Source: Zygnema cylindricum (lineage: Eukaryota > Streptophyta > Zygnematophyceae > Zygnematales > Zygnemataceae). Taken from it: a stretch of DNA of 64,000 bases. Each line of letters opens with the position of its first letter. Positions within the stretch are counted from its first letter, which is position 1. The notes beneath the pieces were generated by a model. That model made no database searches. It was not told the origin of the DNA and saw only the letters and a list, made by a program, of their open reading frames with translations. Location: positions 62,001 to 126,000 of the forward strand of contig JBBHKE010003209.1 in the NCBI GenBank assembly GCA_037447655.1, read 5' to 3'. A program made the position numbers and the translations under genes. Positions 29,079 through 58,341 of this stretch are shown here, in pieces.

Positions 29079-30370
29079 CCGGTCATAGGTGGAAGCACTG
29101 CACCCGGAAACTTAAACCGGAGAGTGCCTTGAAGCTAAAGGAATGGGAGAAAGAACGTGCAGAAAGAACACGAAAGCAATAAGAAAGGATCAAAGGGGAA
29201 GGAGGGGGGGAGAAGGTGCCAGTAACTAATGACACTTACCGTCCGACTCCTCGAGGAGAAACCGCTAAAATATCGCAATCCCAGGTGCGACAAATCAAAC
29301 TTCCAAAGTTTGATGACGCCAAGATCTCAAATGAAATCCGCAGTAAATACACCTCCAAAGGAACAAAATGCGAGGCTTGTGGTTTCCTCGGGCATAAAGA
29401 AACGGAATGCTTCCGAAAGAATGGAGTTCTTAAAGAAATGATGCAGTCGCCTTATTCACTAGAGAAGGAGAAATTGCGTTAACCCTCTCCCACTTCAACT
29501 CCTCTATCCTTAGGGACGCCAAGTTTTGCTTACCCAGGAAGAACCGGAGCGAGCACCGGTGGCTACCACAAGACTTACCCCGAAAGTCATCATTCAGCAG
29601 CAGAGTCAACCGTTATGGCTGCAGAGTTGACTGCCCTCCGCTTGGGATCTTCTTCTCGGCTTGCTCCGCTCACGGCAGCGGAACGACTCCAAAAATAGAA
29701 ACAGAAGTAGTTACAAAAGCTCGCGGAGCTTGAGCTTCAAAGCACCGCGGGTGCTAATGATGCTGACTTATTAGGTTGGGATCTGGAACGCCCAAATGCC
29801 CACCATGCTCAAACTTTCCATTCCGGAGCTTGGAATGTTGGGGTGGGAGATAGCCGCCGCCAACTCCGCAATTCCACCTCGATGCAAAGACAAGACATGC
29901 ACAAAATGGGTCAGATGGACCACAACCGAAAAGCTACCCGTCCTTTGTCCTTTACTCCCCGAGAAGTAATGCTGAACAACCACATTGGCCTCAAAATCAA
30001 ACCCACTCATCCGCCATCTCTTCCTCCCAAACCTAAATTGCCTCCCGGTTTCGAGAACTACCTGAGCAAGAAACAATAACGAGAAAAGGAGTCGCTGGAA
30101 CGAGAGAAAAAAGACAATCACGTCTGGTTTGAGAGATACATGGCGGAACGTCAGAAAATGACACTGCCCAAACTCCGCCAATCCCAGAGTCGGGCCGCGA
30201 GAATGACGAGGAAGAAGGACAGAATAAGGATCCGCAGAAATCGGATTCACTCCCATCTTTACCGAAAGCTACCCTTCCTTCCTCCAAACCAGCTGTCATG
30301 CTAGTCTGACACCTCATGCCATTCGCCCTCACCCACGTAAAGACTCTAGTATCCTCTCAAAACTTGCCCG
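29079..30370 (+). pseudogene. Gypsy G1 Gag, C-terminal part
   Basis: Begins inside the first zinc knuckle (GHRWKHCTRKL), colinear with G2 at about 48204. A highly charged stretch follows, then a second CCHC knuckle CEACGFLGHKETEC (29369-29410). A region alike in G2 (ALRLGSSSR, QKLAELELQST) continues toward the protease. Nucleocapsid function is expected from the paired knuckles. In-frame stops (for example 29480, 29697) and frameshifts interrupt it. Confidence 0.8.
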
Positions 30371-30390
30371 AAGAAATCCTTATTTAAGTA

Positions 30391-31020
30391 TTGGGAGAAG
30401 AAATCCACTCTCGAAAAGGGAGAGTCAACGAGGCCACTTCGCTAACTGCACTCTTTTTGTCCACATATCCGAAAACCCCTATAAAGGATAGGGACTATAA
30501 AGCCTTATCAGTGGCTCTTATACTGAACAGAACAGGAAACTTCAAGCTCAACGCGTACGGTGGATACGAGGACGTCGTGGTCGACACTAGAGCGCTACCC
30601 AATCTCATCACCACCTGTGCGTTGCAAAAAATGCCCAAGGAACTCTGACCTGAAATCTGCCCAAGCAATATCGGCACTCAACCCGTCTATGGGATTATCA
30701 AGGCCATGGAAATTGAGTTTTCGGATGATGGAGGCCAAAGGGTGAAAATTGAGCATCCCTTCTTAGTGGTGGAAGGAACTCAATTCGAAATTCTGTTGGG
30801 AATGGCTTTGTGGACCCGGCTAAATATGAGTTTAAGTGTGTGGAAAGAGCAATGTACCGTTCGAGACCATGGGAATCCCGAAGGAACCAAATTGGTGGTT
30901 CCTTTGGATTTATGGAATCGGGGGAAGACAAATGTCCCTGTGTCTGGTTGCTACCCGGTGTATACTTCATCCTCTACGACGGAACTGTTTGGCAGTTCCA
31001 AAGATATAGCCTAAGAAATC
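30391..31020 (+). pseudogene. Gypsy G1 aspartic protease
   Basis: Retropepsin-like: YGGYEDVVVDTRALPNLITT (about 30556-30615) where the active site should read DTG, and the C-terminal FEILLGMALWTRLN (about 30786-30828). The Gly of DTG is Arg, so this copy is dead. G2 retains DTG. A stop lies at 30646. The linker after it leads to the methyltransferase. Confidence 0.8.
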
Positions 31021-31205
31021 TAGCAATTCCGCATTTCTAAGCGGTGGGAAGAGGAATACAAGAATAAATTATTACTAGTGTCGAAACTCCGCTGGGGAGT
31101 GGATCAGACTTTCTCGCCTGTACCAATAAAGGTAGTCGTTACTACACCCTTGTCTAATGCTTCCGAACCGAGCTCCGACAATAAGGAAATCAACCGACAG
31201 TTGGT

Positions 31206-32185
31206 GTGATTGACAATCCCAGATTCCGACTCCGAATTTTATCTATATTTTATGGAATCAGTTCGGATTTAGAGGTTGTTCTAAAAACAGGATATCAAGT
31301 AGAGTCATATACAGCCGTTGAGATATCACTAGAAGCACGGGCAGTCAGCGAACACCGCACTCACCAACTTCACACCCTATATCCTCAACAGCTCCTAGTG
31401 TTTGCCTTTTCCAAAACTCACCGGAGTCCTCAACAGAATATAGAAAACATTATGAAACCCCATCTAGCCAGTTTGAAAAGAATAGATTTGGTGATGGCAG
31501 GATGGCTTTGTAAGTGATACTCCCTAACGAGACAAGGCAGGGGGCATCAAGACCGCAGGAGTTGGACATTTTATCGGATGATCAAATTAATCTCGTGGAT
31601 TTAACAACTCCAAAACACACCGGTTGGGTACGTTTTGGAAAATGTCCACCCAGGGGATGACAAATGAAAATAGGTTGCGGACAGCTGGAATCAGATAACC
31701 TGAATCTAAGGAGCTCCTTTGGTTTTTGACGCCGCACAGATGGGATTAAGAGCACACAGAGTCAGGGCATATTGCACCATTATGATCCGCTTCTTGTTCT
31801 CCGGCTGCTATTGGATAAACAGATCCCTGACCTGAACAATTCGGTGCAGCAAATACTTGGGTAAGGTAGAATGGCCACGCTCGTGACACGACCCAACCGC
31901 TCCCCCTTCTTTCGGTGCAATCCACCAGTATTCCTATGGAAGGCACTTCCCACATTGGTTTCTTTCCCACACAGCCACGTATATAGAAAGGGAGCAGCGA
32001 AAATGATTTTTGATAGCAAATTGGGTATCTAGACGCCACTGACAATTGCAAAACGGGAAAAAACAATGGGATTTCACAAAGGCACAACGGTAGCATTAGG
32101 TATTTTAGACCTCCAGAGATGCAACCTAATTGGACAAAGTATGGATTTGAATTCGATCACATGGGTACTCAAGCATGCACTCGCC
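31206..32185 (+). pseudogene. C5 cytosine DNA methyltransferase domain inside gypsy G1
   Basis: The conserved C5-MTase motifs appear in order over about 315 codons. Motif I: ILSIFYGISSDLE (31236-31274), the AdoMet loop. Motif II acid: AVEIS (~31315). Motif IV: DLVMAGWLCK, with the catalytic Cys codon at 31509-31511 (Pro replaced by Leu here; PC in G2). Motif VI: YVLENV (ENV at 31638-31646). Motif VIII: AHRVRAY (31751-31770). Motif IX: AKREKTMGF (~32048-32076). Motif X: LIGQSMDLN (~32125-32151). Stops at 31515, ~31600, ~31668 and elsewhere, plus frameshifts, show decay. It lies between protease and RT, and G2 has it at the same place, so it belongs to the element. I recall retrotransposon-borne methyltransferases being reported from a charophyte alga and dinoflagellates. 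Confidence 0.85.
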
Positions 32186-32319
32186 TTTTCCAATCTCAAG
32201 TCCCCGGAATCAAGGGCTATTTATCTTTAAGCTCCTCAGTTGTTAGCGATGCAGGAAACTTTGCAGCTTGAGGGGGGGAGAGAAAGGAGAAGAAAAATTC
32301 ACATTTCACCACCGCAGGT

Positions 32320-33346
32320 TGCAATTCTGTGTCCTCCATTGGACAACATAATACACAAAGCCTCTAAATAGCCTCTAAATAGTGTTTAACTAACCCACTT
32401 CAAGCCACAATCACTGGTGCCTAAGAAGGCAAACTGTCAAATTGACTACACACTTATGCAACTTGGACTCCCCTGAGTCCGTAGCAAAAAGAATCACGAA
32501 AAACAGCCAACTAGCCGATAAGTTAAGAGTCGGCAAAGATGCCAATTTATACAAATCTCCCAAGGGAGAGGTGACTGTCTAAAAATATTCTAAGTCCTAC
32601 ATCTCTCTCACAAACCCTATTTACTAAAGTACGCTCCAATCAGGATACTGTAAAGTACCAAAGATTACTGTGGCCGATGTACTTTATGTACGGCCTCTGT
32701 ACGACAAGGCCATTGAGTGGACGCATGTCGCCGTTTAAATCGTCTTTATGTCGTTCGAGATCCCCGCTGCTCAATTAAATCCTTCCACGTATCGCTAGGT
32801 CACGCCACGTTACGCCACGTCTGAAAAACCGCCAAAGTGACAATTTCGGGACCTCGGCGATGATAAGCGCCGTCGGATGAAGACCGGCTTTTGATGTACG
32901 CCGTTAAAATAAATGTCCGACTCATTTATTTCGTGTGGCGGATTAGATGTACGCATTGAATCTGCTACGTCTCTAAGTTTCCTTTTCACAGTAAAGTTAA
33001 TCGGATTAGTGTTTTGTTCAATGTTTAAATAAATGTCGTACCCCATATAATGTAACGAACTCCTACGACAGACTAGTTAGAGCTGACGGCTACGCCGCGC
33101 TTTGCCGGTCGGAGGTTCGAGTCCTGCCAGACTCAATTTTTTGTTGAGAGTGACTTAGGTCACTCTTAAGTCCTGCCTATGGAGCTGAGGTAGCCATGGC
33201 TCCATCACCCTCTCTATGTTTTAGTGACTACAACAAGTATGGGGGGTAGCAAGAAGAGGTGGAGGCAGGCTGCCTGCGCTTTTACTTTTCCTGTTTTTAC
33301 TAATAAATTCAGACCTAGAAAATACCTTATAAATCTGATAATTTCA
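32320..33346 (-). mobile_element. Copia D 3' LTR (about 1027 bp)
   Basis: Minus strand, starts about TGAAATTATCAG and ends GAATTGCA. The first few bases of the LTR seem lost at the deletion joint with RT. Confidence 0.85.
33069..33134 (+). ncRNA. tRNA-like sequence, antisense in copia D 3' LTR
   Basis: Plus strand GACTAGTTAGAGC, then a perfect B box GGTTCGAGTCC (33114-33124), then six Ts (33137-33142), a good Pol III terminator. The best B box plus terminator pair in the window. Confidence 0.7.
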
Positions 33347-36314
33347 TGGAGCAAAGGTCTCCTCATAGTCAATCCCCTCCTTTGGGTGAACCCCTTCGCT
33401 ACCAATCGAGCCTTATATCTCTCAATGGTATAATCTGGGTTCAGTTTTCGTTTAAATACCAATTTACACCCAATAAGTTTTTCTGTCTAGGGGACAATCA
33501 GCTAGTTCCCAAGTATTTGCTTCCATGATAGAGGCCATCTCATCATTTATGGCTCTAATCCATCTTTCTTTCTCTAGACTATTCATTGCCTCCGAGTAAG
33601 ACTGAGGCTCATCTGGGTGAGATAGCTTATTTACCTTATGACCGACCTGTTTTTCCTGTATCGTTTTGCTACTCCTTCTTCCTCCCTCAAACTCCGAAGC
33701 TGGAATGGATGGAAGTCTTGGATTTCTCCTCAGTGTCTCATCGGCTCCCTTGTCTATGGAAGTCGGTTCTGGTCCCACTTCTTCTATCTCCTCGAAGTCC
33801 ATAGGAGTATGTGAAGTTTCCGGTGAACCTCCTCTATCTTGGATCTCCCTTGAGTCTACAATCACGGTTTCACTCATGTTCCTTTTGGGAACGACCGAGT
33901 TCTCCTCAGTTTCGGACTCAAATTTGATTTTTATCTTCTTTGTATATTTGAAGGGGTCAAATGACTTCCCTTCATCCATGACAACTAGGTGTTTGACTTG
34001 AATGATATCTTTCTTTGCTAAGTCATAGACTGTATACCCCTTAACATCCTCATCATATCCCTCAAAGTATCCTGGTTTTCCCTTAGCATCTAGTTTCCGG
34101 TTTTTCTTATCCGTGTCAAGACTATAAACTTGGCTACCGAACACTTTAAGGTGTGAGATATCTGGTTTCCTTCCCACCCATCTCTCATAAGGTGTCACTC
34201 CCTTTACAACTGAGGTACGGACTTCATTCTTAATGTTGTTGGCACAGTTCATTGCCTTTGCCCAAAATCTCTTTCCTATTTTCTTGTCGACCAATATACT
34301 GCATGTTCTATCTCCAAGTGTTCAATTCAACCTCTCAACTACCACATTTTGTTCCGGGTTATATGGTACAGCTTTTTGGTGCTGCACTCCCTCATCTCTC
34401 AGATAATCCTCAAACTGGTTAGAGGTATATTCCCCCCCATTATCACTTCTTATTCTCTTAATGGGGGTTTCATGCAACTTCCACTCCAGGCTTTATATTC
34501 TTTGAAGTAAGTTGATGTTTCAGACTTTGTTTTTAGGAAATACACTCTAGAGTATCTAGACCAGTCACCGGTTATTGTCAACATAAACCTCTTTCCTCCA
34601 ACCGAAAGTACATTTGCAGGTCCCCAAATATCTGTGTGGACCAAATCTAGTACTTTCTCACCTCTATATGTGGCGGCTTTGGGATAGGGTAGTATGTGCG
34701 CCTTACTTTGAGTAGAACCACTACAATCATCCATCATTTCATTATCCCAAGTTGAATGTCTTCTACTGCCCCAAGCTTTTTCATTTCCCTCAACCTATCA
34801 AAATGCACATGTCCCAATCGTTTATGCCAAATCATCAACTTAGGAACAACAACACAGTAAGCATTCACTTTTTCATTACTCCGGTGAAGCGTAAACATTC
34901 CTTGGCTAGCCTTATTCCGTGAAGTAAACTTCATCCCCATACTTAGCTGTAAAGACTCCCTTTCTAGTGAAAGTATCTAACAGACGTAGAGACAAGATTT
35001 TTACTCAATTGAGGAATGTAGAGTACATCTAAGAATTTGAGTATAGAAGTCTTACCCTCCACTAAGACTTTCAGATATAATTACCCCACTAGATATGTAG
35101 TAACCACTTTTCCATCCCCATACTCTATCTCTACAGTAGGGATCTTTCTTAGCTTAGTGAAGAGTTCCCTATTACGACACATATCCATGGATGCACCTGA
35201 GTCGATGATCCATCCTTTTTGTGGAGCTTCCCGAATTGCTCTAAGGGCACACTTTTGTCTCCAAGGGATCTCCTTCTCCTCCAGACTCTCGTCAAGAAGA
35301 AGCTCCCCATCCTCCTCAAAAGATTCGTCCTCGGTTTCTCCTGTCACTATTGTAACCACAAGTGCATTTTTCTTCCCTCCGAAAGAACCCCCTCAACGGT
35401 TCTCTTGGAGCCTCAGCTTTAATAGCTTGACAAAATCCGCGATAAAGTGTCCCGGCTTCTTGCAAAAATGACAAAGGCCCTTTCGAGGCCTTGGTCCTGC
35501 CGGCTGATCTCTTCCCCCTTTGTACAATTTCTTCGGGTCCTTCCCCCATCGATCTTCTTGAGCAGCTAGAGCTTGAATGATTTTTCCTCCTCTCCTAATC
35601 TCCATTCGGTTTTCCTGCACAAGTATCATCAGGACCACTGTATTCCACTTCTATGAACTATTAGTCATTTCTTGTACTCGGTACACTATGTTCTCGTACT
35701 AATCTGGTAACTTCATAATGAGAGTGTTAACTTTCATCTTCATTGTACCTGTCCACCGGACACTTTCCATCTCCATATAGAAACAAGAAAGATCATTACA
35801 ATAATCTAACATCTTTCCTCCTTTGTAAGTGTAACTCACTAGATTTTGCTCAGCCAACTGGAGCTCCTGAATAGTAACACCTCTATAGATCTCCACCAAA
35901 CTCACCCACAACTCCTTGGCCTTGTAAATGTGAAGAAGAGGAGTGGCCAAAGCTTGCGCGAGGTGCCTTAGAATGAAGTTTTTGGCAGCCATGTTCACGT
36001 CTTCCCACATTTGAGTATCGTTCTCCACGGTCTTCACGGCCGCCGCTCTTGGTGCTGTGGCAATAGGAGTGAGGGGTTTCTCCTTCCCTTTCTCCTTTTC
36101 TAACACACTGTTATCCCCATTACCTGCCTGCTCCGCGGAAGTAGTCGATGCTGCTCAAAACCTTACTCCAAATCCTGGTGGAGTTCCCAAAGGTGGACGT
36201 TTCACTTGTTTACTGACTATACCCCAATATCGTTTTTTGCACAAAGCTCCTATCATCATGACTTCCTAATAGATGAACCCAGATCCATTGAAGGTGGGAA
36301 CCCTAGAGGGTGGG
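33347..36314 (-). pseudogene. Copia D Gag-Pol, truncated and broken
   Basis: Minus-strand pieces: Gag with MGPPSRVPTFNG start (~36312), middle Gag (36106-35699), zinc knuckle CHFCKKPGHF (~35480), protease WIIDSGASMDMC (~35190), integrase zinc region and VHTDIWGP (~34640), SDNGGEY (~34440), then RT to GFTQ ... DYEETFAP (~33350). Multiple stops and frameshifts. RT stops before the catalytic YVDD. The upstream LTR-encoded ATG is closed by a TAG right at the LTR end, leaving only the ATG inside the PBS. Confidence 0.9.
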
Positions 36315-36323
36315 CCCATAACC
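36309..36323 (-). other. Copia D primer-binding site
   Basis: GGTTATGGGCCCACC on the minus strand, identical to elements A and B and complementary to the initiator tRNA-Met anticodon arm. Confidence 0.85.
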
Positions 36324-37342
36324 TACAATTCTTTATCCTCCATTGGACAACAGAATACAGGAAACCTCTAGATAGTGTTTAACTAACCCGATTCAAGCCA
36401 CAATCACTGGTGCCCAAGATGGCAAACTGACAATTTGACTGCACCCCTTTGCAGCGTGAATTCCCATGAGTCCGTAGCAAAAATAATCACTGAAAACGGC
36501 CAACGAACCGATAAGTTATGAGTTCGCAAAGATGCCAATTTATACAAAGCTCCCAAGGAAGAGGTGACTGTCTAAAGATATTATAAGTCCTACATCTCTC
36601 TCACAAACCCTATTTACTAAAGTACGCTCCAATCAGAATACTGCAAAGTACCAAAAAGTACTGTAGCCGATGTACTTTATGTACGGCCTTTGTACGATAA
36701 GGCCATGGAGTAGACGCCTATCGCCGTTTGAATCGTCCTTATGTCGTCCATGATCCCTGCTGCTCAATACAATCCTGCCATGTATCGCTAGGTCACTCCA
36801 TGTCACGCCACGTCCGAAAACCGCCAAAGTGACCATTCTGGGACCTCGGCGACAATTAGCGCCGTCGGATGAAGACCAGTGTTTAATGTAGGCCGTTGAA
36901 AACAGATGTCCGACTCATTTATTTTGTTAATTGGATGTGATGTTTGTACTGAATCTGCGATGTCTTTATGTTTCCTTTTCACAGTTATGTTAATCAAATT
37001 AATGTTCTCTTTCATGTTTAAATAAATATCATACCTCATGTAATGTAAGGAACTTCACTGACAGACCGGTTAGAGCTCACGGCTACGCAATGCTCTGCTC
37101 GTCAGAGGTTCGAGTCTTGCCGGACTCAACCTTTTGTTGAGAGTGACTTAGGTCACTCTTAAGTCCTGCCTATGGATCTGAGGCAGCCATGGCTCCACCA
37201 GCCTCTCTATCCTTCAATGGCTACAACAAGTATGGGGGGGAGAGTGAAGAGGTGGAGGCAGGCTACATGCGCTTTTGCTTTTCCTGTTTTAACCAATAAA
37301 TTCAGATCTAGAAAATACCATATACATCTAACTATTTCAGCA
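36324..37342 (-). mobile_element. Copia D 5' LTR (1019 bp)
   Basis: Minus strand TGCTGAAATAGTTAG ... AAGAATTGTA. It diverges clearly from the D 3' LTR, so D is older than A or B. Confidence 0.9.
37062..37128 (+). ncRNA. tRNA-like sequence, antisense in copia D 5' LTR
   Basis: Plus strand GACCGGTTAGAGC, B box GGTTCGAGTCT (37107-37117), then T4 at 37132-37135. Confidence 0.65.
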
Positions 37343-38498
37343 CAGGTTTTCCCAATGGGGGGGGGCGGCGGTTCAGATGGTGATAGCTTAGCGGAAGTTG
37401 TCAGCGGTAGTGTCCTAGCTAGAGGGGTAAGGGGAGATCCACCGGTAGGGTTGGAATTTGACATCAACCTCCGAGGTAGACCGCCGGAAGCTTGGGTTGT
37501 CGTAGAGTTAGGGAAAATGGATTGGATGTGGGGGAGCAGTTAGACCGTCAGCAGAAGGCTCGGCTTTCCGAAATGTTGGCCGAAAACAAGCAGGTTCTCA
37601 TGGTCAGAAACAGATGTCAGTATCTACAAAGGGACCCCTTTCCGAATCGATTTGATCGACGAGACGGCTACTGTTTGGCAGAAGCAGTATCCTCTCAGCT
37701 TCAAGGAAAAGGAATTCATCACGGCTAAAGTCCAAACTTTGGTGGAAGCCGGATTGGTTCAGGAAAGTACAGGACTTCATGGGTTCGCCTCCGCGATAGT
37801 CCTCCCTCCCAAAAAGGACTCGGTCCGAGAAAACTGTAGATTTCCGGATGTGTGGAGATTATCGCATGCTGAACACTGCCACCATTTCTGACCGGTATCC
37901 GATGCCGACCCCGAAAGACGTATTTGACTCCGTTGTTGGTGCCACTATCTACTCCAATCTGGACATAAAAAATGGTTTCCACCAGATTGCTATGGAACCA
38001 AAGCAAGGGGATAGAACGACCTTTTGGGCAGGTTCCCGGCTTTATGAATGGATTAACATGCGATTCGGGCTTAAAAATGCGCCGGCCAAATTCCAACGGG
38101 CCATGGACAAAGCACCCCGAGGAATTGATTGTGTCTGGTGCTATATTGATGATGTGATCATCTTCTCAAAGACCTTTGAAGAACCCTTGGACCATATCCA
38201 AATCGTCCTCCGGGCCCTTCAAGCTGCGGGCTTGAAATGTCACCCGAGCAAAGGTATTTTTGGTGTACTGGAAATCATTTACCTCAGACATGAGGTGACT
38301 CCCGGGACTGTGGGTCCCCACATGGTCAAGGTAGCAGCCTTTGACGCTCTTCCCCCACCGCAGGACATCTCAACCCTTCGTACCTTTCTGGGTCTAGCCA
38401 ACTACTATCGGCGGTTTATCCCCAAGTTTAGTAGTCATGCTCAACTTCTCAACCACCTATTGCTGAAGGACCAAGGATGGCAGTTGGGCGAAGAATAA
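37343..38498 (+). pseudogene. Gypsy G1 reverse transcriptase
   Basis: Ty3/gypsy RT: EKEFITAKVQTLVEAGLVQ, DYRMLNTATISDRYPMPTP, DIKNGFHQIAM, the catalytic YIDD box (CYIDDVIIFS, ~38140-38170) and the thumb FLGLANYYRRFIPKF. The frame shifts near 37850, and stops occur upstream near 37542. The 37343-37540 part joins the methyltransferase end to RT across the copia D insertion. Confidence 0.9.
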
Positions 38499-39001
38499 CA
38501 GATCGCCTTCCAGTTTTTGAAGGATGCTCTATAGCAGCAACCCGTGCTCTGGATGCTTGATCATCAGAGGCCTTTCCTCTTTTATAATGATTGGAGCAGG
38601 TTTGGAATGGGAGCGGTTTTGGCTCAAGTCGATGCTGCCAGAGTTGAATATGTGGTAACCTACGCTAGCCGGAACAACAACAGATCTAAGGGAATTATAG
38701 CAGTTACCACGAAGAGCTACTCACAACGGTTTGGGCAATCCAGCATTTCCGACCTTATTTGTACGGGGTCCATTTCACCCTGATCACAGATCACCATCCC
38801 GTGAAATGGATCATGGAAAATAGTAAGTTAACCGGCAAACCCGCTAGATGGGTTCTTATCCAGCAAGAATATGATTTCGACATTGTTCATAGAGCAAGGG
38901 AAGTCCAAGGGAATGCCGATGGACTTAGCCGGAATCCAGATCCCTCCACCATGGATTCTACTGGGGCTCGGCATGATGAGGACCCTGAAATCAGCCTGTG
39001 A
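38499..39001 (+). pseudogene. Gypsy G1 RNase H
   Basis: Follows RT: PFLFYNDWSRFGMGAVLAQ gives the first acidic site, FTLITDHHPVKWI the TDH motif, and NADGLSR the C-terminal Asp. A frameshift lies near 38760, with stops at 38496 and 38532. Confidence 0.88.
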
Positions 39002-39195: not shown

Positions 39196-40100
39196 GTAGA
39201 CCCGGATGGCTGCGTATGATTGGGACAAAGGCGTTCTCCTCCGAAAACGGTCAGACGGCACGAGGAGAGTGGTTCCACCCCCCTCGAACCGAGAAACTGT
39301 GATTTCCAATCTCATCAGTGTGGACATTTCGAGCAAAAGCGGACCACTTCTCTTGTGGCGGGCTCTTATTAATGGCACGGATTGCGGACCCAAGTAAACA
39401 AAATTGTCGCTCCTTCTGCGATCGAGTAAAGAAAGCCTTTGACAAGAAAGGCGGAACTGAACTCCATTCGCTTCCAATCCGGGGGGTGTTTTATCGGTGG
39501 TCTTTATATCTTTTGGGACTTCTTCCGACCAGCCGGCGAGGAACCGCTTGTGCTGGTCATGAAATAACATTTTTCCAAGTGGATCGAATTGGTGGTTTTG
39601 CCCCTCAAGGAGTCGAAGGCCATTGCAGATGTTTTTTTGCAAAGGGTTTTAGCACAATTTGGAGCGCTCGCGGAAGTTCTAACGAACCAAGGCTCCGAAG
39701 CCGAAGAATTTTCTAACCTCTTGGAAAAATGCCTAGTCGACCAACCGCTGACTACTCGTGACCACCCGCAAGCCGACGGTTTCGCAGAAAGATGCGTACG
39801 GACAGTGAAGCGGTCACTACGGAAAAATGCTGTTGAAGAAGATTTGGGGGAGTGGGACAGAAGGGTGCCTTGGATTGCTATGGGCTACAGATTCAGTAGC
39901 CAGGCTTCTCTCCACTCATGCAACCCTTATTTTATTCCATTTAGACGACATCCCATCTTGCACGGGACTGCATCAGCCTAAGCTGTGGTCCTCCCGGAGA
40001 TGGATGACTAAGGGACAGTCGAAAAACTAATCGCCAACAGAGCCAAGATATTTCACCGAGAGATGCCACTCGCCATGGGAAATTTGCAGGCAGCTCAGCT
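39196..40100 (+). pseudogene. Gypsy G1 integrase, catalytic residues lost
   Basis: Zinc-binding region in two frames (39270-39430). The core follows: YRWSLYLLG (~39495) has Tyr where the first catalytic Asp belongs. TNQGSEAEEF (~39690) has Asn for the second Asp. The Glu survives in GFAERCVRTVKRSL (~39780-39820). The terminal SH3-like part is at 40155-40330. Frameshifted in several places, so inactive. Confidence 0.85.
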
Positions 40101-40552
40101 TGTGGTATTCTCACCGCCCGCTCCGCCTGAGCGGGAATTATGTGTCTCGACAACGACGTTTTATGCCGGGAGACTTTGTATATCGGATGCAACAGAAGAA
40201 GGACAGGCTGTATATTTTTGTAGGGAGAGTAATTTTGAAAGTGGTCAAAGTTTCCAACAAGGGGGTTCTTACATTGGAGGGAAAGGATGGTCGAAGAATT
40301 AAAGACAATCAGATCTATGTGGCCCCTTGCCATCTTCGGGGATTGGAAGACGAGTCCACTTTCCACTTAACTTACTTTGCCAATCCTCCTTCCTGCTCAT
40401 CAACGTGCAATCATTCCTCTCAGCTGCACGAGATATTGGTCTGCAATCAATGTGGTCAGTGTTTCCATTTAGCCTGTGTCCCATCCTCTTGGGAGCCACA
40501 CCCTCTACCCTCCAACACCTGGTTTTGTGGGAACTGCGAATGGGGCGGGTGA
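40100..40552 (+). pseudogene. Gypsy G1 integrase C-terminus with PHD finger
   Basis: One open frame of 150 codons: FMPGDFVYRMQQKKDR and VVKVSNKGVLTLEGKDGR (integrase C-terminal beta domain), then a zinc module at 40394-40536. The Cys/His spacing is C-x3-C, x11, C-x2-C, x4, H-x2-C, x15, C-x2-C, with Trp (NTWFCGNC) two residues before the seventh Cys. This is the C4HC3 pattern of a PHD finger, with x3 instead of x2 in the first pair. Many PHD fingers bind the histone H3 tail. It occupies the place where chromoviruses have a chromodomain, so a targeting role is likely by analogy. The stop at 40550 ends the polyprotein. Confidence 0.75.
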
Positions 40553-40593
40553 TTTTATGTCTTAGTCACGGTTGAGTTAGAAGGGGGGGATAT

Positions 40594-42121
40594 TTGGATA
40601 TCAGCCGAGTACCGAGACCCAAATCCCTTTCCCTGTCCCGGGGGGGGGGGGGGGGGCGGGGGGGGGGAGAAAGTGAGGGGGAGGGGGTAACCTTCGCCTT
40701 CCCCTGTACTCCTCCCTATTCCGTGTCGGAGCTTCTCTCCTATTTTGCATGCATATCTATGGGAGGGATGTGTACTCCTCCCTATTCCCTGTCGGAGCTT
40801 CTCTCCTATTTTGCATGCAAATCTATGGGAGGGATTTGGGCAGTAGTGGGCATGATAATCATTCTGGGAAGCATTCACATTTTAAGGTTACTTGCAAAAC
40901 TCCAATGTCGATTATCCCGAGCTGTGGGACCTCCTTTAATGTTCCTAAGGCACGTTCGGCACCTGTCAAGCTCGTGTGCTTTTCAGGCACACCTGTATAT
41001 AACCAAGGATTTCCGGGCCCTTTTTACCCTGTACGGTCTTCAGGGTACGGAAGAAAGAGTGCACCCAGCCAGACGAGATACATTTATTTCCTAAACTGAG
41101 CGTAACACACTTTATTTCACGCCTAACGGAGGTCGGAGGACAAAGTTCTACCGTCTCAAAGATAGCAATTCCGTAACATGGGACCAGTTTCCACCAGTCC
41201 CCGTGGGGGGTACATTGTGGATAGCCACGTAATTTCCCGGATTTGCATCTAGATTATACTGTAAGCTGTCCGTAGGAATTTAGTTCAGGCTCAGCTGACC
41301 TTCGGTCCATTAATTAGGTCAGGTCAAAGTCTGGCAAGTTAGTGTCATTTTCAGGACTTTGTATTATAATAATGGACCAAATAATTATTTCCGGCCGCGT
41401 ATCTAGCTGCAGTCCGGAGCAGAACTTTTTGCCCCAAGTGTTGTACGGATTGTTTTGTTTTATGTCAGTTCCATTACACTTGCTTGTCGCTTATTGGTTA
41501 ATAGCGTAGCTTTGACTTTTGGACTTGCAATTTGAAAAGCTTTCATGTATAAGGCACTTGGGGTCGAAGGAGACATGTTGCTTTTTAGTACCGTCTCCTG
41601 TTAAAACTCTCAGAAATTCAAAAAAACCTTTTTTTGGAGAATCTTTATTTTGTTTGACTCTATTGCCATCTTGGTTTTGGATCTGTCTTTTGTGGGAATC
41701 ACAGTCTGGGTGGGTGGTTGGCACTATTTGCTTTTTGGGTGATTTTCGGACTTTTGCTATTTGAAGTTGAGAAGAGTCTTGTCGGTTCAGAGCTAAGGAC
41801 ATCGGAGGTTGAAGTAGCACCATACCTATTTACAATACTATCGAGACCTTTCTCCCGTTGTCGTCGTTTATTGCTGGGGTAGGTTAAGCTTGCTTCGCTA
41901 TATTTCACATTCTCTTTCTTTTATTCTCTTTTCTTGTTAAATTTGGAAAGCCAATCCTATGACATATATATATTTCTACATGGTAGTGCATTCGTGTCTT
42001 CATCTGGAGTTCTCTTTGCTTTGGAGTGACCCTCCCGGAGTAAACTGAAACCCCCTGGATCAGGACAGTGGGTTTTGAGGGAACAAGTGCGATCGACTTC
42101 TCGTAGAGAAAGCACTGAAAT
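40594..42121 (+). mobile_element. Gypsy G1 3' LTR (~1.53 kb)
   Basis: Preceded by polypurine GAAGGGGGGGA. Starts TTGGATATCAGCC and ends AGCACTGAAAT, where G2's LTR begins without spacer. Contains a long G-run (40638-40670) and a 66-bp tandem duplication (40705-40770, 40771-40836) that other copies lack. Confidence 0.8.
40705..40836 (+). repeat. 66-bp tandem duplication in gypsy LTR
   Basis: Two near-identical units beginning TGTACTCCTCCCTATTCC and ending GGGAGGGAT. The same segment is single in the LTRs starting at 42122, 58342 and 60026. Confidence 0.9.
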
Positions 42122-42413
42122 TGGGATATCAACCGGGTACCGAGACCCAAATCCCTTTTCTTGTCCCGGGGGGGGGGGAAGTGAGGGGGAGGGGATAACC
42201 TTCGCCTTCCCCTGTACTCCTCTCTATTCCCTGTCCGAGCTTCTCTCCTATTTTGCATGCATATCTATGGGAGGGATGTGGGTAGTAGTGGGCATGATCA
42301 TCATTCTGGGAAGCATTTACAATTGAAGGTTACTTGCAGTTGTCCGATGCCGATTATCTAGGGCTGTGGGCCCTCCTCTAATGTTCCTCAGGCATGCTCG
42401 ATATGTGTCAAAT

Positions 42414-42810
42414 TGTTAGCCATGTTGTACAATGGTCGTACAGAAAGTACACCGGCACCTGTACCTTTTTGTACGACACAATATTATGATTGGCGCCGTA
42501 CTTCAGTATATAGAGGTTTAGAGAGAGATAGGACTTAGAAAAATTTTGGTAGACAGGACCCTCACTCTGAGATAGCTTTTGTACAAAATGTCAACTTTGA
42601 CCCTCCATAACTTACTGCTCAGAGGAGCAAATTCAGAGATTCTTTTTGCTATCGACTCAGTGGAATCTCGCCTTCATAGGGATGGAGGTGGTTAGAGGTT
42701 TTGCTTGCCAGGGTGGCAATTATTTGTTCTGAAACACAAAGGGGTCAGGGTTATCCTAGAGGCTTCGTGTGAGTTGCTTACTTTGAGGGCCAATGGAGGT
42801 CTGAGAGTTA
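42414..42810 (+). mobile_element. Truncated A-type copia LTR
   Basis: Matches the last ~400 bp of the copia A LTR, from the GTAC hairpin to GGAGGTCTGAGAGTT. Its 5' part, including the tRNA-like segment, is gone. Confidence 0.85.
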
Positions 42811-44147
42811 AAAACAACAAAACAACGATAAATAGGACAAAACACGAAGGTTCAAATTGTATATTCACGTAACTTAATTTTGTTGTTGGATGTACGGATA
42901 CAATTTTAGATATTGCATTTGGAATCTTTGACATGCTCGTCGTCAAAGCATGAACCTACGTGCATCCAATCGAAAGAAGGCACGTACGCGATAGATTTCT
43001 TGCTGACAAGACCTGATGGAGAAGTGAACGAAATATTACTACCAGTAAACGAATTGTACGATTACTGTCGGCGCATGATGGAGAAGAGGCCTAAGGGTAC
43101 GTCCCCGTGTAAGCGATACTTTGAAATAGTATTTTGGACTATAGTGAAGTGTTTCGTACTACTTTGAAAAGCGTCCCAATGTGCGAAAATGAAATCTAAA
43201 CTTTGAAATGTGATGGTTGTAGACATAGGTACAACTTTTTGACAGTTGAAGACGACAACCAAACTTCCGACAATTGGTGACGCCAACAAAATCAGCGACG
43301 GTTGTAGACGTTTCGGTTTTTGTAATTTTGTGACATGGTAGATGTTGAGGGTTATGTGACATTGTGACGCAATGCTCACTAATGACAACGTCGACGTCAC
43401 AAAATTCGAGAACTTTCTGCCATTGCTATCCGATTTCGTTTTTCCGACTTTTCTCACTTGATTTGCCATAAAAATATACATAAAGGTAGTCAAAAAAATT
43501 ATTTTTTATATATCTTTCATTTAATACCAGTTTTGTCGTGCCTCATTCTAAAAAGTGAGGGATAAAAGCGATAGTGTGAGAGGGAGAGAGGAGAGGCGAC
43601 GATGGCGCAAAATTTTGCAAAAGACCTATGAACGAAAGTGGAGGTCCGAGACCCTTGCAGATTTTTTTCCGTACATGCTCGTCTTTCCGTACATGCACGT
43701 GACGGACAGGGAGAAAAAGAGTGAGTGCTCTCCTTGTACTAAAATTTTCCCACTTGTGTGGCACGTGCTTGGACCATTTTTCATTCGTTGTTTGGGTGGT
43801 ACTTTCCCTAAAATCCAATCGCGAGGTAGTTTGTGATGAAGTGTTTTGACGGGCTGGATTCTCTNNNNNNNNNNCCTGCCATGACTTTTTCGTTGGACAG
43901 AGGAAGCTGGGGTTCACGGAATATGTAGTTTCAAACAGTTTAACGTCCAGGTTTTCAGTTTCGATGCGATAATTGGTTATTCGCCGTTCGTTCACATTAC
44001 CTTGACTGTATTCTGTTTTGTTAGGCATGATGTGAACCCCGTTTTTCAAGACGAGGTCTGACGCCGATCTATGCGCCGGCTTTTATTAATAAACCAGGTA
44101 ACAATATTATGTTTCAGGACTTTTACTGTGATTGAACGGTCTGAAAT
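42811..44147. other. Unidentified insert in gypsy LTR, with assembly gap
   Basis: About 1.3 kb of non-LTR sequence. An 84-codon ORF at 42913-43167 (plus) starts MHLESLTCSSSKHEP and contains a DFLLTRPDGEVNEI stretch; I do not recognise it. A run of 10 Ns lies at 43865-43874. No terminal repeats were found. Confidence 0.4.
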
Positions 44148-45022
44148 GTCCGTAGGAGTTTAGTTCAAGCTCAGTTGACCTTCGGTCCATTAATTAGGTC
44201 AGGTCAAAGTCTGGCAAGTTAGTGTCATTTTCAGGACTTTGTATTATAACAATGGACCAAATAATTATTTTCGGCCGCGTATCTAGCCGCAGTCTGGAGC
44301 AGAACTTTTTGCCCCAAGTGTAGTACGGATTGTTTTGTCTTATGTCAGTTCCATTACACTTGCTTGCCGCTTATTGGTTAATAGCGTAGCTTTGACTTTT
44401 GGACCTGCAATTTGACAAACTTTGATGTATAAGGCACTTGGGGTCGAAGGAGACAGGTTGCTTTTTCAGTACCGTCCCCTGTGAAAACTCTCAGAAATTC
44501 CAGCAAACCTTCTTTTGGAGAATCTTTATTTTGTTTGAATTTATTGCCATCTTGGTTTTGGATCTGTCTTTTGTGGGAATCACAGTCCAGATGGGTGGTT
44601 GGCACTATCTCATTTTTCGGTGATTTTTGGACTTCTTGCTGTTTGAAATCGAGAAGAGTCTTGTCGGTGCCGAGCTGCGGACACCGGAGGTTAAAGGAGC
44701 ACTATACCAATTTACGATACTATCGGGACCTTTCTCCCGATGTCATCGTTTATTGTTGGGGTAGGAAAAGCTTGCATCCCTATATTTCACATTCTCTTTC
44801 TTTTATTCTCTTTTCTGAGACAAGGTGATATTGTTAAATTTGGAAAGCCAATCCTATTACATATATATATTTCTACTTGGTAGTGCATTTGTGTCTTCAT
44901 CTAGAGTTCTCTTTGCTTTAGAGTGACCCTCCCGGAGTAAACTGAAACCCCTTGGATCAAGACACTGGGTTTTGAGGGAACAAGTGTGATCGACTTCTCG
45001 TAGAGAAAATACAGTACTGAAA

Positions 45023-48000
45023 AGCCACCCTGTCCGCTCGGATTAGAGGGGATAGGAGTTTTGACTTTGGAAGCTCTCTCTTTGGAATTGAGTTCCGGCT
45101 ACATTCATTACATTTTCTCTTGTTACCACAATCATCATTGAAGGAGAAGAGACTCCGGATAACGGATTTGGAGGGCAGGGTAAGCAACCCGTACACGAGG
45201 AGAAGTCTCAGATGTCCGAGGAGTCCGTACCCCTGGAGTCTGTCTTTGATTCTCCAACCAAAGAACCAGCTGGTGCTTCTTCTCCTCCTCCTCCTCCCAA
45301 TCTGACTCTCTAATATTATCCTTTCTTGGCGGAGGCCGCTAGGACCTTTGCTGAGGAAAGGAAAGAATCTCGGGCTCAGGCCCAGGAAAGGAACTGAGTG
45401 TCTTCAGGGCCCGGCCAAAGCGGCAAGCTCAAAGGGAGACCCATTTGGGCCCTCTTCCGGAGGTCGGGCTTCACACAAGATCCAAGATTCCCCGGCCTGA
45501 GATCCAAATTGACCTCGCGGTTTTGACGGATCCACATGGCTAAGGTCGTAAGGAACTCCGTCCCCTTCATGACCTCTATGAGTTGAAGGTGAAGAAGGAG
45601 TTGGTGCAGAGAGTGGCTCAGACAGATCGAGTCAGGGTGGTTAGACCCGTGGGAGGGGTGGTGGAGATTTTGAGAAGTTCTTCGAAGAGCAACTCTTCAC
45701 AGTCGGTGCCGGACTGATTACAGAGAGTTCCTTATTCTCGCCCTCCTCCATCTTCTTCTCAAAAAACAGCAGCCTGCAGACCCTTCGGGGGCGCACCTTC
45801 TCGAGGCCTCATAGAGGAGAAGGGGGTTGCGAGAGGGAAGCTTGAGATACCTTGAGGGGAAAGAGGTTTGATTACAAGGACACCAAGGGGAGATTCGCAC
45901 CTCTTTCCAAGGAGGAGACATCCCCAACTCCTGTGTCAGCCTCAACCGAGAGACCTTTTTCTACAATAACTCGTGTGCGCCTAAAAGAAGGGCTATGGCG
46001 ATCAAAACCTATTGATCCAAAGGTTCCGGCCACGGGCCCTGAAGATTTGTCCGAGGGAGGGTGGCGGACCTGACCCTATGACCCCGAAATTCCGGGGATG
46101 GAGAGAGCGAATCTTACCAAAGTAGTCGAAAAGGCCAAGGAATTAGTGGAAGTTCTACAATCACAAGGCAAGGCTACGGCGGGGACCGGACTCGTCACTA
46201 TAGATTGGGAAGCCTTAGAGGTAGAAAGGCGGAAACTATGGGAACATGAATTGGAACTTATTCGGGAAGCTAGGCGTAGATCTAGTTGGATTCTCAGTGG
46301 GCAGATTCCTCCTGCATCAAGGAATGAGCTGCATCTTGAAGCGCCAGCTCAAGGGACTTCTGCTCTCGCAAGCCCCAGCCAAAGGTTCCTTCCTCGGATA
46401 CTAGCCTAAAGCCTCCTCTTCGGCGGGTAGGGGGGAGGAACATTAAACCTAACATGAAGGGTTTGGGTGCAGATTTACCTCCTGAGATTGTTTCTCTTCC
46501 CGGGAAGAGCCTACCTTTATATCGGTGGAGGTTGCTTCCGCCGTGGAGGCTTTGGTGGAGTTACGACCAGGCGAGAGGATTCACATTCCCTTGAGGCCGC
46601 TAAAACCCCCTTCACCATCTCTCGGAATATCCCTAGATCTCCCATCTTCTCCTCCTCTATCTTTTCACCTCTCGGGTCCTACAACAGAGCTCCGGGACGT
46701 TCCCGCCTCCTCTCCCTCTTCATCCTTTTCTTCAATTGCGGCGGTCCGTGGGTCACCAGATCCGCTTGTCTTACCCTACAAACACGACGTTTACTCACCA
46801 CCTCACCGGCGTTCCCCATCCTCTAGCTCAGGAACACCTCCTCCTGAGTCCTCCCGAAGGCGACCAAAGAGACAGACGCCATTCAAGAGACAGACATCTT
46901 CTCCTCAAAACCTCCAGTCATCCCTTTTTGCGCCACCACCCATTCCCCAAGAACCTCCTTTGAACAGACCTTGCCTCCACATCCCATCGGTGGAGCAAGT
47001 TCGCAGGGAAGATCAATACTCTCTTGGATATAGAGGAGTAGTGGGGAACATCCTTCCTCCAACAATACTTTCTGTGCAGGTACTTTCTTTGTGGGAGGGG
47101 GATCCACACCTTCCAGGGCAGCTCCTCGTATAGGAGGAGGAGACTGTTCCGTTCCCGAGGGAGAGGACACTGGAGTCATCTCTTGTGCTCAGTTTGTCAG
47201 TCCTACAGTGCCTTCCTCTTCCCATTTCACCAATCCTATAGAGGAAGAAATGGAAATGGGGGATTTTCGGATTTTTACAGGAGATAGCTCGCGATCGTAT
47301 TTTCAAATTTCGAATTGTTGTGGAAATCCTTCACACAATCTGAGATCAACTAATACAGGGGAGGAGTCATGCTGGATGACTTTGAAACTACCCTCTTTCC
47401 AATGCTGGTCAACTACCTTTTTGGAGGGGCGTTGGCGGATTACAAAGAGCGACAACCACTCTTGATGGCTTCAACATCAAGATCTCGGATCCAGCTCTCG
47501 ACGTCGTTGTTTTACAAGCAGAGGCTGACTTGGCTGCAGTGGCTGCAACACTTGTGACTTCTACCTTCATAGATGACATGAAACTACAAGCAGAAGGAAT
47601 AGGTTATGTTAACCAGCTACAAGCCATTTAGGGGGCCCGGGGGGCAACCCGCATGGTTGCCAACCCCAACCCTTATACTACTCTGCTGAATATCTGGAGG
47701 CTCCTCTACACCGAGAGGAACGAGTCTGCGATCAAGGAATTTATGGAACGAGACATGTTTGATGAACGAGACTCCGCAAACCCTTTTTAACGACTCTCTT
47801 GCCTATGTCAGAAAACAAAGTTGTCCACTATTGATCTTCCGACGATGGCCACCAAATATTTCATTGCCGTTTGTAATTCGTTCCAGCCAACAGGGCAGAC
47901 TGCCCTAGATAATTAGATTGCTGGACAGGCACTTCAGGACATAAATCCTTCGGCCAAGGAAATTTGGCGATGAAGTTGTACGACCACTTTGTCCACAATG

Positions 48001-48366
48001 AGGCAAACGAGAAGGTCGTAACCGGCAAGACCCACCCAAATTTTGCAAGATTCGCCAGGGAGACCTCCTTGAGTGAGGCGGAACAGGCTGAACTTCAAGC
48101 TTTGCGGTATCTTAAAGGGAAACAAGTAGCTGACAGCGGGTCAGAACCACCAATTGGAGCAGATGAGCGAGTGTTTGTCTATAATTGCATGAATTGTAAA
48201 CAACTAGGTCATAGGTGGAAGCACTACACCCGGAAACTGAAATCGGAGTTGGCCTTGAAACTAAAGGAATGGGAGAAAGAACGTACAGAAAGGATCCAGA
48301 GGCACCAAGAAAGGCTTAAAGGGGAAATGGGGGGAGAGAAGACGCCCGTGACAAAGGACACTTAAC
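45023..48366 (+). pseudogene. Gypsy G2 Gag, first part
   Basis: Gag appears to begin near Met 45211 (MSEESVPLESVFDSPTKEPA). A proline/serine-rich and charged section follows (45850-47130), then a probable capsid region (about 47370-48180). The first zinc knuckle CMNCKQLGHRWKHY lies at 48186-48227; its last Cys is Tyr here but still Cys in G1. A Lys/Glu-rich stretch ends at 48365, where copia B is inserted. Stops at 45302, 45396, 46072 and others, plus frameshifts, mark it as decayed. The assignment as capsid is by position only. Confidence 0.7.
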
Positions 48367-48573
48367 TGTTGAAATTTATAGATTTCTAGAGTATTTTCTA
48401 GGTTTAAATATGGTTTTATAAAAGGAAAAAGAAAAAGGACGGACAGCCTGCCTCCACCTCCGCTCTCTAGCCCCCATACTTGTTGTAGTCACTGAAGGAA
48501 AGAGAGAGAGGTTGATCCATGGCTGCCTTAGTTCAACAGACAGCTATTTTTAGTAGGTTACTAAAAATATACT

Positions 48574-48651
48574 TGACGGACCAGAGATTTGATCCCGGTA
48601 CCTGCGGTTCGTCAAATCGACCGGTAGCGGTCAGCTTTATCCTAATAGACT
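48574..48651 (-). ncRNA. tRNA-like sequence, antisense in copia B 5' LTR
   Basis: Minus strand AGTCTATTAGGATAAAGC (A-box-like), then GGGATCAAATC (B-box-like), then ATTTTTAG (T5, 48561-48568). Degenerate as a cloverleaf. Confidence 0.5.
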
Positions 48652-49187
48652 AGGACCAATGCTAAGTGCTATGGTATGTGATAGATATATATTTAGTTCG
48701 AAAGGATAAAGTTCATTTAACTAAAACTGTTTACGGCGTACATATATACAGTTTTATAAAGTACGTCGTACGACGCTAATTCAAAACGGATACCACGCAT
48801 TTTACTTCTACATCGGAACAAATATCGCGCAAGTATTTATTCCGGCCAAGATTACGTTTCGCATATAATCCAACGGCGCACATCATCGCCGAAATCCCGG
48901 AGTGGTCACTTTGGCATTTAGTGACGTGGCATCACCTGGCGCCACGTGGGGAGACATCATTCGGTCGCGGGAATTCCGAGGAACGTACGGATGAGTGGAA
49001 AGTATACACGCGTCCACTAATGGCCTTGTCGTACAGAGGCCGTACAGAAAGTACATCGGCAGTAGTACTTTCTAGTACTATACAGTTTTGTGATTGGTTC
49101 GTACAGGCAGTAGATAGGAGCTGTGAGAGGGAATTAGGAAAAACTAGGACTTAGGAAAATTTAGGTAGATAGTCCTCTCTCTCAGAG

Positions 49188-49202
49188 AGTTTGTATAAAT
49201 TG
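49188..49202 (+). promoter_or_regulatory. Candidate TATA box of copia B
   Basis: GTATAAATTGGCA lies 100 bp downstream of an inverted CCAAT and 200 bp before the LTR end, a sensible place for an LTR promoter. Not tested. Confidence 0.4.
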
Positions 49203-49394
49203 GCATCTTTGCCACCCTATAACTTATCGCCTGGTTGGCCGTTTTCAGTGATTCTTTTTTCTACGGACTCAGGGGAGTCCAGGCTACACAGGGGTGCAGT
49301 CAAATTGTCAGTTTGCCTTCTTGGGCAGCAGTGGTTGTGGCTTAAAGTGGGTTAGTTAAATACTATCTAGAGGCTTCCTGTATTCTGTGGTCCA

Positions 49395-53744: not shown

Positions 53745-53757
53745 AAAATAAGGGGAG
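53745..53757 (+). other. Copia B polypurine tract
   Basis: AAAATAAGGGGAG immediately before the 3' LTR, expected plus-strand primer. The same AAGGGGAG tract occurs before the LTRs at 10169 and 24211. Confidence 0.9.
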
Positions 53758-56640: not shown

Positions 56641-56819
56641 TGGAAAGAGGAATATAAGAATTAGTTAATTGCAGGTGGCAAAACTCCGACGGGGAGTGGA
56701 TCGGATATTTTCGGCATTATCGCTAAAGGAAACAGTCTTTTCACCCATGCTTGATGCTTCAACACCCAAGCACGGTAATGTGGAGTTCAATCGACAAGTG
56801 GTGTCATTGGCAGTCCTTG

Positions 56820-58285: not shown

Positions 58286-58341
58286 TGGAGCGAGTAATTA
58301 TTTTTATATCATAGTCAAGGTTGACTAAGAGGGGGTAGAAT

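What the first reader, a model, noticed from the sequence alone, without database searches (positions are those of the whole stretch)
31206..32185. A Ty3/gypsy retrotransposon family carries its own C5 cytosine DNA methyltransferase between protease and RT
G1 shows motifs I, II, IV, VI, VIII, IX and X in order over ~315 codons, flanked by its own protease and RT. G2 (56820-57228) has the same domain in the same place with an intact Pro-Cys. Two independent copies at one position mean the enzyme was part of the mobile element. DNA methylation normally silences retrotransposons, so an element-encoded writer may allow self-methylation, disguise of new copies, or protection from excision or rival systems. 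I recall such captures reported in a charophyte alga and in dinoflagellates; whether this lineage and the pairing with a PHD finger are known I cannot tell.
Basis: partly seen in the sequence, partly recalled or inferred. Interest (0 to 1): 0.95.

Follow-up and report, generated by a model that had tools for sequence, protein, structure and literature searches.

The report
Retrotransposons carrying a DNA methyltransferase
A family of jumping genes in an unnamed photosynthetic organism carries its own DNMT3-type DNA methyltransferase and a histone-reader-type PHD finger; one such case was already published in a green alga, but this family adds new parts and belongs to a lineage found in several green algae and a liverwort.

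Summary
Confirmed. Window 31206-32224 is a decayed C5 DNA methyltransferase (8 stops, a frameshift) between protease and RT of a Ty3/gypsy element (G1); G2 keeps the first ~40% of the same domain. Both are dead, but the unnamed 353 Mb genome lists at least 209 such places, some in long open frames (one of 2395 aa: gag-PR-MTase-RT-RNaseH-IN-PHD). Sequence and predicted fold are DNMT3-type; among 90 relatives the catalytic Cys is kept in 89 and the motif VI Glu in 87; copies are under purifying selection. The kind is known: KnitGypsy-Dnmt3 of Klebsormidium nitens (de Mendoza 2018), whose odd A-coding-B-A-B repeats this family shares. Not found in my literature searches: the PHD finger; a conserved in-frame TAG-CAA-TT between protease and MTase in one subfamily, suggesting readthrough; relatives in Closterium, Marchantia and Haematococcus; and a sister lineage with the MTase between RNase H and integrase. 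Best reading: the MTase travels with RT and methylates the element's new DNA while the PHD finger guides integration. That is inferred; activity, target and benefit are untested, and CpG depletion is no stronger than in two neighbouring copia-like stretches.

The parts
29081..32311 (+). G1, first part: end of gag, protease, methyltransferase
   Evidence: 65% DNA identity to L033 2524-5750
30508..30990 (+). G1 protease region (approximate ends; catalytic motif decayed, second motif ILLG readable; same region in G2 reads DTG)
   Evidence: read from the sequence against L033/L034 frames; not a Pfam hit
31021..31023 (+). in-frame TAG followed by CAA TTC, between protease and methyltransferase of G1
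31206..32224 (+). G1 DNMT3-type C5 cytosine methyltransferase, decayed
32312..37342 (-). element inserted in G1 (reads as copia by eye; not scanned)
   Evidence: gap in the match to L033; minus-strand frames
37763..38390 (+). G1 reverse transcriptase
   Evidence: Pfam RVT_1 E 1.9e-22; 80% identity to an open copy
38690..39001 (+). G1 RNase H part
   Evidence: Pfam RT_RNaseH E 1e-16
39316..39894 (+). G1 integrase, decayed (3 stops)
   Evidence: tblastn E 6.4e-69; stops; Pfam integrase hit only weak
40403..40537 (+). G1 PHD finger at the C-terminus of Pol
   Evidence: Pfam PF00628 E 4.7e-7, 30.2 bits over cut-off 24
40589..42212 (+). right end of G1: repeats B (40589-40772), A (40774-42111), B (42117-42212); last boundary inferred
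   Evidence: arrangement supported on other copies
42213..45008 (+). left repeat A of G2 (42213-42411 and 44147-45008, with an insert between)
   Evidence: boundary inferred
46135..48292 (+). G2, first part: gag region in pieces
   Evidence: matches L033 473-2609
48367..54803 (+). element inserted in G2 with identical 300-base end repeats (reads as copia; not scanned)
54829..56616 (+). G2: end of gag and protease
56617..56619 (+). in-frame TAG followed by CAA TTC in G2
56804..57206 (+). G2 methyltransferase, first 134 of 340 residues, decayed
58339..60183 (+). repeats B, A, B read as the right end of G2 (A interrupted at about 59376-59595)
   Evidence: assignment to G2 inferred

Best explanation
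G1 and G2 are dead members of a recently active Ty3/gypsy lineage whose Pol polyprotein includes a DNMT3-type C5 DNA methyltransferase and a C-terminal PHD finger. Shown from sequence: domain order, DNMT3-type sequence and predicted fold, kept catalytic residues, purifying selection, many copies, recent copies, B-A-B right ends with A at the left end, and a conserved stop between protease and MTase in one subfamily. Inferred: ribosomes read through that stop, so the MTase heads the minor Gag-Pol product and is packed in the particle with RT and integrase. There, or in the integration complex, it methylates the new double-stranded cDNA, so a new copy arrives already marked. The PHD finger, placed after the integrase like the chromodomain of chromoviruses, steers integration by reading histone H3. 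The likely benefit is tolerance: copies methylated early harm the host less and look less foreign.
Against: No activity, expression or methylation data for this family. The published K. nitens domain did not methylate yeast DNA, which its authors call inconclusive. CpG observed/expected is 0.62-0.94 in eight elements, not below two copia-like stretches at 0.55 and 0.65. The MTase changes faster than RT. In 43 of 90 relatives the residue before the Cys is Glu, not Pro. The PHD finger is below Pfam's cut-off in L033 and L034 and was not seen in 22 of 34 U-type proteins, some of them incomplete. Dinoflagellate elements with and without DNMT expand alike.
Confidence: 0.45

Rival explanations
1. 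The MTase is active but acts on host chromatin at or after integration, guided by the PHD finger, marking the neighbourhood (for example against rival elements or recombination) rather than the cDNA in the particle.
For: DNMT3 type and a PHD finger in the same polyprotein; animal DNMT3 also carries a PHD-like ADD domain (ADD named; its PHD likeness recalled).
Against: The MTase sits next to protease and RT, not next to integrase and PHD, in the window's lineage; nothing shows that it reaches chromatin.
Confidence: 0.25
2. The domain is kept for another task: methylation of RNA (genomic RNA or primer tRNA) or a structural role in the polyprotein.
For: No excess CpG depletion; Glu-Cys variants; inactive, though inconclusive, K. 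nitens domain in yeast.
Against: Closer to DNMT3 (2.1e-21) than to the tRNA enzyme DNMT2 (1.2e-5); catalytic residues kept.
Confidence: 0.2
3. The MTase is a passenger that hitch-hikes without benefit.
For: Faster change than RT; dead copies common; 3 of 122 rows of the RT clade had room for the domain but no match.
Against: pN/pS well under 1 with saturated synonymous sites; catalytic residues kept across deep branches.
Confidence: 0.07
4. A chance fusion: a host methyltransferase gene lies beside the element.
For: Only two decayed copies lie in the window.
Against: Single open frames join MTase and RT; fixed spacing genome-wide; same union in named species.
Confidence: 0.01

Closest known systems
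KnitGypsy-Dnmt3 of Klebsormidium nitens (de Mendoza et al. 2018, PMC5890265; parts 1-3 of 7 and passages read)
   Same: DNMT3-type MTase inside the Pol of an LTR Gypsy element, purifying selection, repeats arranged A-coding-B-A-B; a K. nitens protein (P0035) is a direct relative with the MTase before RT.
   Different: Other host, at least 209 MTase places, two subfamilies, a PHD finger (not in the paper's main text; figure not held), a conserved stop before the MTase in one subfamily, Glu-Cys enzymes in the other.
SymbioDIRS-Dnmt3 and SymbioLINE-Dnmt of dinoflagellates (same paper)
   Same: Retrotransposon-encoded DNMT, partly of DNMT3 type; SymbioDIRS domains were active on CpG in yeast.
   Different: DIRS and LINE elements, with tyrosine recombinase or endonuclease instead of a DDE integrase.
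Chromoviruses (Ty3/gypsy with chromodomain)
   Same: Chromatin-reader type of domain after the integrase.
   Different: PHD finger instead of chromodomain in the frames scanned; one relative, P0038, lists both.
Animal DNMT3A/3B
   Same: Sequence and fold of the catalytic domain.
   Different: Encoded in a retrotransposon polyprotein; no PWWP or ADD domain seen; Pro-Cys or Glu-Cys in motif IV.
Orchid Ty3/gypsy elements with an m6A RNA demethylase domain (PMC9289625; listing only)
   Same: Ty3/gypsy element with a captured nucleic-acid-modifying enzyme.
   Different: Other enzyme, acting on RNA.

Membership tests
Ty3/gypsy retrotransposon | Pol order protease - RT - RNase H - integrase (rve) | tested here: met
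   L031 frame; G1 pieces
KnitGypsy-Dnmt3 | DNMT3-type MTase inside Gypsy Pol | tested here: met
KnitGypsy-Dnmt3 | repeats A-coding-B-A-B as in DIRS | tested here: met
   left end A only in L031; B twice at one end in 8 contigs, spacing 0.95-1.23 kb (40 of 222 candidates scored)
KnitGypsy-Dnmt3 | MTase under purifying selection | tested here: met
KnitGypsy-Dnmt3 | direct relatedness to the K. nitens element | tested here: met
   P0035 37% identity over 92%, E 6.9e-49; same side of the MTase and RT trees of 26, but with the other side in the 146-row RT tree
KnitGypsy-Dnmt3 | whether the K. nitens element has a PHD finger | tested here: inconclusive
   P0035 is partial and ends before that place; figure not held
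DNMT3 methyltransferases | closest to DNMT3 in sequence and fold | tested here: met
DNMT3 methyltransferases | motifs in linear order (not rearranged as in DRM) | tested here: met
DNMT3 methyltransferases | grouping with DNMT3 in a tree of all DNMT families | not tested
   no reference set of other DNMT families was at hand
DNMT3 methyltransferases | de novo DNA methylation activity | not testable with these tools
   -
Chromovirus | chromodomain after the integrase | tested here: not met
   none at E 0.1 or better in the L031, L033 and L034 frames, which run to the end of Pol
DIRS retrotransposon | tyrosine recombinase | tested here: not met
   rve integrase instead; no phage integrase listed for L031, L033, L034 at E 0.1
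UAG readthrough signal of tobamovirus type (UAG-CAR-YYA, recalled) | the full hexamer after UAG | tested here: inconclusive
   TAG-CAA-TT in 16 of 18 distinct segments, but the next base is C or G, not A

The most novel reading that the evidence does not exclude
One ancient capture of a DNMT3 enzyme, in an ancestor of green algae and land plants, founded a PHD-bearing Ty3/gypsy clade that has kept a working DNA writer and a chromatin reader ever since: a self-propagating epigenetic system that marks its own copies. The MTase later moved once, between the place before RT and the place after RNase H, and about half of the sampled enzymes took a Glu-Cys active site. Such elements could have shaped the methylomes of algae and liverworts.
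Probability: 0.3. Interest if true: 0.85.

Novelty: new variant of a known kind. Interest (0 to 1): 0.6.

Why it matters
DNA methylation is the classic host weapon against transposons, so an element that keeps its own writer under selection is a paradox. The published Gypsy case was one alga, which by its authors' words has fewer copies than the dinoflagellates. A genome with at least 209 MTase places, relatives in several green lineages, two positions in Pol and a paired reader domain makes the question testable: is new cDNA methylated, in which context, and does that help the element or tame it? It also warns that DNMT and PHD gene counts in algal genomes may include such elements.

Tried and rejected
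Chance fusion with a host gene: rejected by single open frames and genome-wide spacing. DRM-type (rearranged) enzyme: rejected, motif order is linear. MTase-free copies of subfamily b: looked for by protease-to-RT spacing. Of 150 RT places, 63 have a listed protease within 6 kb upstream; none shows the roughly 1.3 kb expected without the domain. Of the 20 without a listed MTase, 18 lie at 2273-2398 bases, one at 1755, one at 3347. What fills the slot in those 20 was not seen, and 87 RT places had no listed protease. The MTase list in that script was the 124 rows plus 33 rows chosen.

Plain LTRs: the B-A-B end fits better, though one contig (C1234) has two B places 10.9 kb apart, unexplained, and most of the 40 places have no listed partner. 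CpG depletion as a trace of self-methylation: not found, with only two copia-like stretches as controls. RbcL to name the organism: no match in the assembly. Host DNMT1 domain (PF12047): not completed. Search for free-standing relatives: 50 proteins, mostly metagenome pieces, none named as an organism's host gene (only the 7999 candidates sharing most words were scored). Stops at the protease/MTase or RNase H/integrase junctions of subfamily a (L039, L043) have other contexts and look like decay. Host name: 352.8 Mb in 2689 contigs is near Zygnema cf. cylindricum SAG 698-1a (359.8 Mb, 3,587 scaffolds, Copia 29.8%; passages of PMC9915684); this is a guess.

Full report
OBSERVATION. The window lies in an unnamed eukaryotic assembly of 352,776,454 bases in 2689 contigs with chlorophyll a/b-binding genes (88 matches, best E 1.3e-48), so the host is photosynthetic. 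Stop-masked translation of G1 gives Pfam DNA_methylase at E 2.4e-4, just under the curated cut-off, and of G2 at 2.5e-5, above it. Against an open copy elsewhere in the genome, G1 matches residues 5-194 and 206-340 of 340 (E 7.6e-104), and G2 residues 1-134 (E 1.9e-39). G1 carries 6 stops, a frameshift and 2 more stops there. G2 has Pro-Cys but a stop directly before it and a frameshift, and is cut at about 57208.

ANATOMY. G1 is 29081-32311 plus 37343-40589, split by an inserted element that reads as copia. G2 is 46135-48292 (in pieces) plus 54829-57208. G1 goes on with RT (Pfam E 1.9e-22), RNase H (1e-16) and a PHD finger (4.7e-7); its integrase is decayed and shows by tblastn (6.4e-69). G1 and G2 are 79% identical over 2411 aligned bases, so they are old, separate copies.

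THE FAMILY IN THIS GENOME. A Pfam search scored 123 of 782 candidates. I fetched 20 longer stretches of the 123 places. L031 holds one frame of 2395 aa with zinc knuckle and protease (both below Pfam's cut-off), MTase, RT, RNase H, integrase and PHD; L033 and L034 hold frames of 1525 and 1520 aa from MTase to a PHD finger that is below cut-off. By tblastn a PHD region is present in 15 of the 20 stretches; the other 5 are truncated or end earlier. There are two subfamilies, a (L031) and b (L033, to which G1 and G2 belong); their MTases are 42% and their RTs 52% identical. Of the 150 best RT places (3501 candidates), 70 have a listed MTase 0.5-2.6 kb upstream on the same strand and none downstream; together give 209 distinct MTase places on 184 contigs. 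The lists hold only the best candidates, so counts are lower bounds. A protease search (150 of 875 candidates scored) tests for MTase-free copies: 63 of 150 RT places have a listed protease within 6 kb upstream; spacing is 2291-2404 bases in 41 of 43 with a listed MTase, and 2273-2398 in 18 of 20 without. None shows the spacing expected if the domain were missing.

SELECTION AND AGE. Stop-free copies give pN/pS medians of 0.18 (a, 26 pairs) and 0.36 (b, 6 pairs) for the MTase, against 0.05 (25 pairs) and 0.13 (6 pairs) for RT; synonymous sites are mostly saturated, and pairs with pS of 0.02 or less were dropped. An earlier run, which kept copies with stops, gave dN/dS 0.18-0.42 (a, 6 pairs) and 0.12-0.38 (b, 6 pairs). 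So the MTase is under purifying selection but changes faster than RT. L031's end repeats are identical over the 420 bases seen, which means a recent insertion.

A CONSERVED STOP. In subfamily b the protease and the MTase are in one frame but separated by a stop. In 18 distinct 42-base segments found in the window and the fetched loci, the stop is TAG in 17 and TAA in 1; TAG-CAA-TT stands in 16 of 18. G1 and G2 share it. UAG-CAA-UUA is the tobamovirus readthrough context (recalled); here the last base is C or G. I infer that Pol, led by the MTase, is made by readthrough. L031 has no stop there; that of L039 has another context.

REPEATS. De Mendoza et al. state for KnitGypsy-Dnmt3 that repeats are arranged as in DIRS (A-coding-B-A-B) with Gypsy domains (legends). 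Here L031's left repeat begins with A: its match to the right repeat starts at base 15, and the 14 bases before it do not match. A genome search with B finds 40 places (40 of 222 candidates scored): 8 contigs hold pairs 0.95-1.23 kb apart, and in 8 of 8 the first, in the query's direction, starts at query base 1-7 and the second at 14-19, after the G-tract; on C1344, the contig of L031, no B is listed at the left end. The window reads coding-B-A-B-A-coding-B-A-B, as two such elements side by side; the boundary between them is inferred.

RELATIVES. A first protein search gave 42 hits, including Marchantia polymorpha (44% identity) and K. nitens (37%). An RT search (120 of 133 listed) added Closterium sp. 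NIES-53 and NIES-54 and Haematococcus lacustris. Of 143 proteins with RT, the MTase lies before RT in 34 (U), between RNase H and integrase in 35 (D), and was not seen in 74; of these 74, 66 were too short or irregular to tell and 8 had room. PHD was seen in 12 of 34 U, 29 of 35 D and 48 of 74 others. Named U hosts are Closterium, Marchantia and K. nitens; the one named D host is Haematococcus, whose two gene models hold MTase pieces (domain E 1e-21 to 1e-25 in one-sequence searches) and no PHD. With 26 proteins, U and D are each one side of a branch in the MTase tree (100/100) and the RT tree (99/97). In a 146-row RT tree (quick method) all 37 U and 35 D rows fall in one 122-row clade (SH-aLRT 96) with 47 undecided rows and 3 with room but no MTase; there the K. 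nitens-type U rows go with D. In a 62-row MTase tree 26 of 27 U rows form a clade (99) with 4 Marchantia rows, one long-branch Closterium row excepted; D as one clade is not rejected (p-AU 0.716). One capture followed by a move within Pol is the simplest reading; two captures of related enzymes are not excluded.

MECHANISM. Domain order, selection and repeats are shown; readthrough, packaging, cDNA methylation and PHD-guided integration are inferred. Against strong CpG self-methylation, CpG observed/expected in eight elements is 0.62-0.94, and in G1 and G2 pieces 0.61-0.75, not below two neighbouring copia-like stretches at 0.65 and 0.55.

LITERATURE. Read: PMC5890265, parts 1-3 of 7 and passages. 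Passages only: PMC12344493, which says that some DNMT3 members are embedded in LTR and DIRS elements, as reported in streptophytes and dinoflagellates; PMC6338049; PMC8226300; PMC9915684; PMC11096116. Searches for DNMT-bearing retrotransposons, PHD-bearing Ty3/gypsy, readthrough, and Marchantia, Closterium, Zygnema or Haematococcus cases listed, by titles and abstract starts, no second report of a Gypsy-Dnmt3 element, of a PHD pairing or of a stop before the MTase; the library lacks most subscription papers and all figures.

VERDICT. The kind is known; this family adds a reader domain, a likely recoding signal, scale, wider green-lineage spread and a second position in Pol. Interest 0.6.

Noticed in passing
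window 48367-48666 and 53758-54057; 19257-19556 and 24656-24955: Two pairs of identical 300-base direct repeats, 5391 and 5399 bases apart: likely end repeats of two recent copia-like insertions, the first inside G2.
   Followed up: no
G000:C961:71707-72342 (-): A family RT (93% identity) lies in an open frame of 5743 aa, far longer than the 2395 aa of L031.
   Followed up: no
L031 2774-9841 and L032: The two copies are 99.87% identical from L031 base 2774 on but show no match upstream of it inside the fetched stretches, as if the 5' part had been exchanged.
   Followed up: no
G000 contigs C519, C2590, C1116, C610, C1077: Clusters of chlorophyll a/b-binding genes on both strands.
   Followed up: no
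window 32845-32936: ARAGORN calls a tRNA-Phe inside the element inserted in G1; not checked.
   Followed up: no
P0038: A relative with MTase between RNase H and integrase that lists both PHD and chromodomain.
   Followed up: no
P0191: A plainly eukaryotic element of this clade is filed under a bacterial metagenome genome (Minisyncoccia); probably contamination.
   Followed up: no
Zygnema cf. cylindricum SAG 698-1a (literature, PMC9915684): The preprint reports a PHD class at least 9-fold larger than in other Zygnema strains; retrotransposon PHD fingers like this one could explain it, if that alga carries the family.
   Followed up: no
G000:C1234:89821-90076 and 100715-100957 (-): Two B repeats 10.9 kb apart instead of about 1.2 kb.
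   Followed up: no
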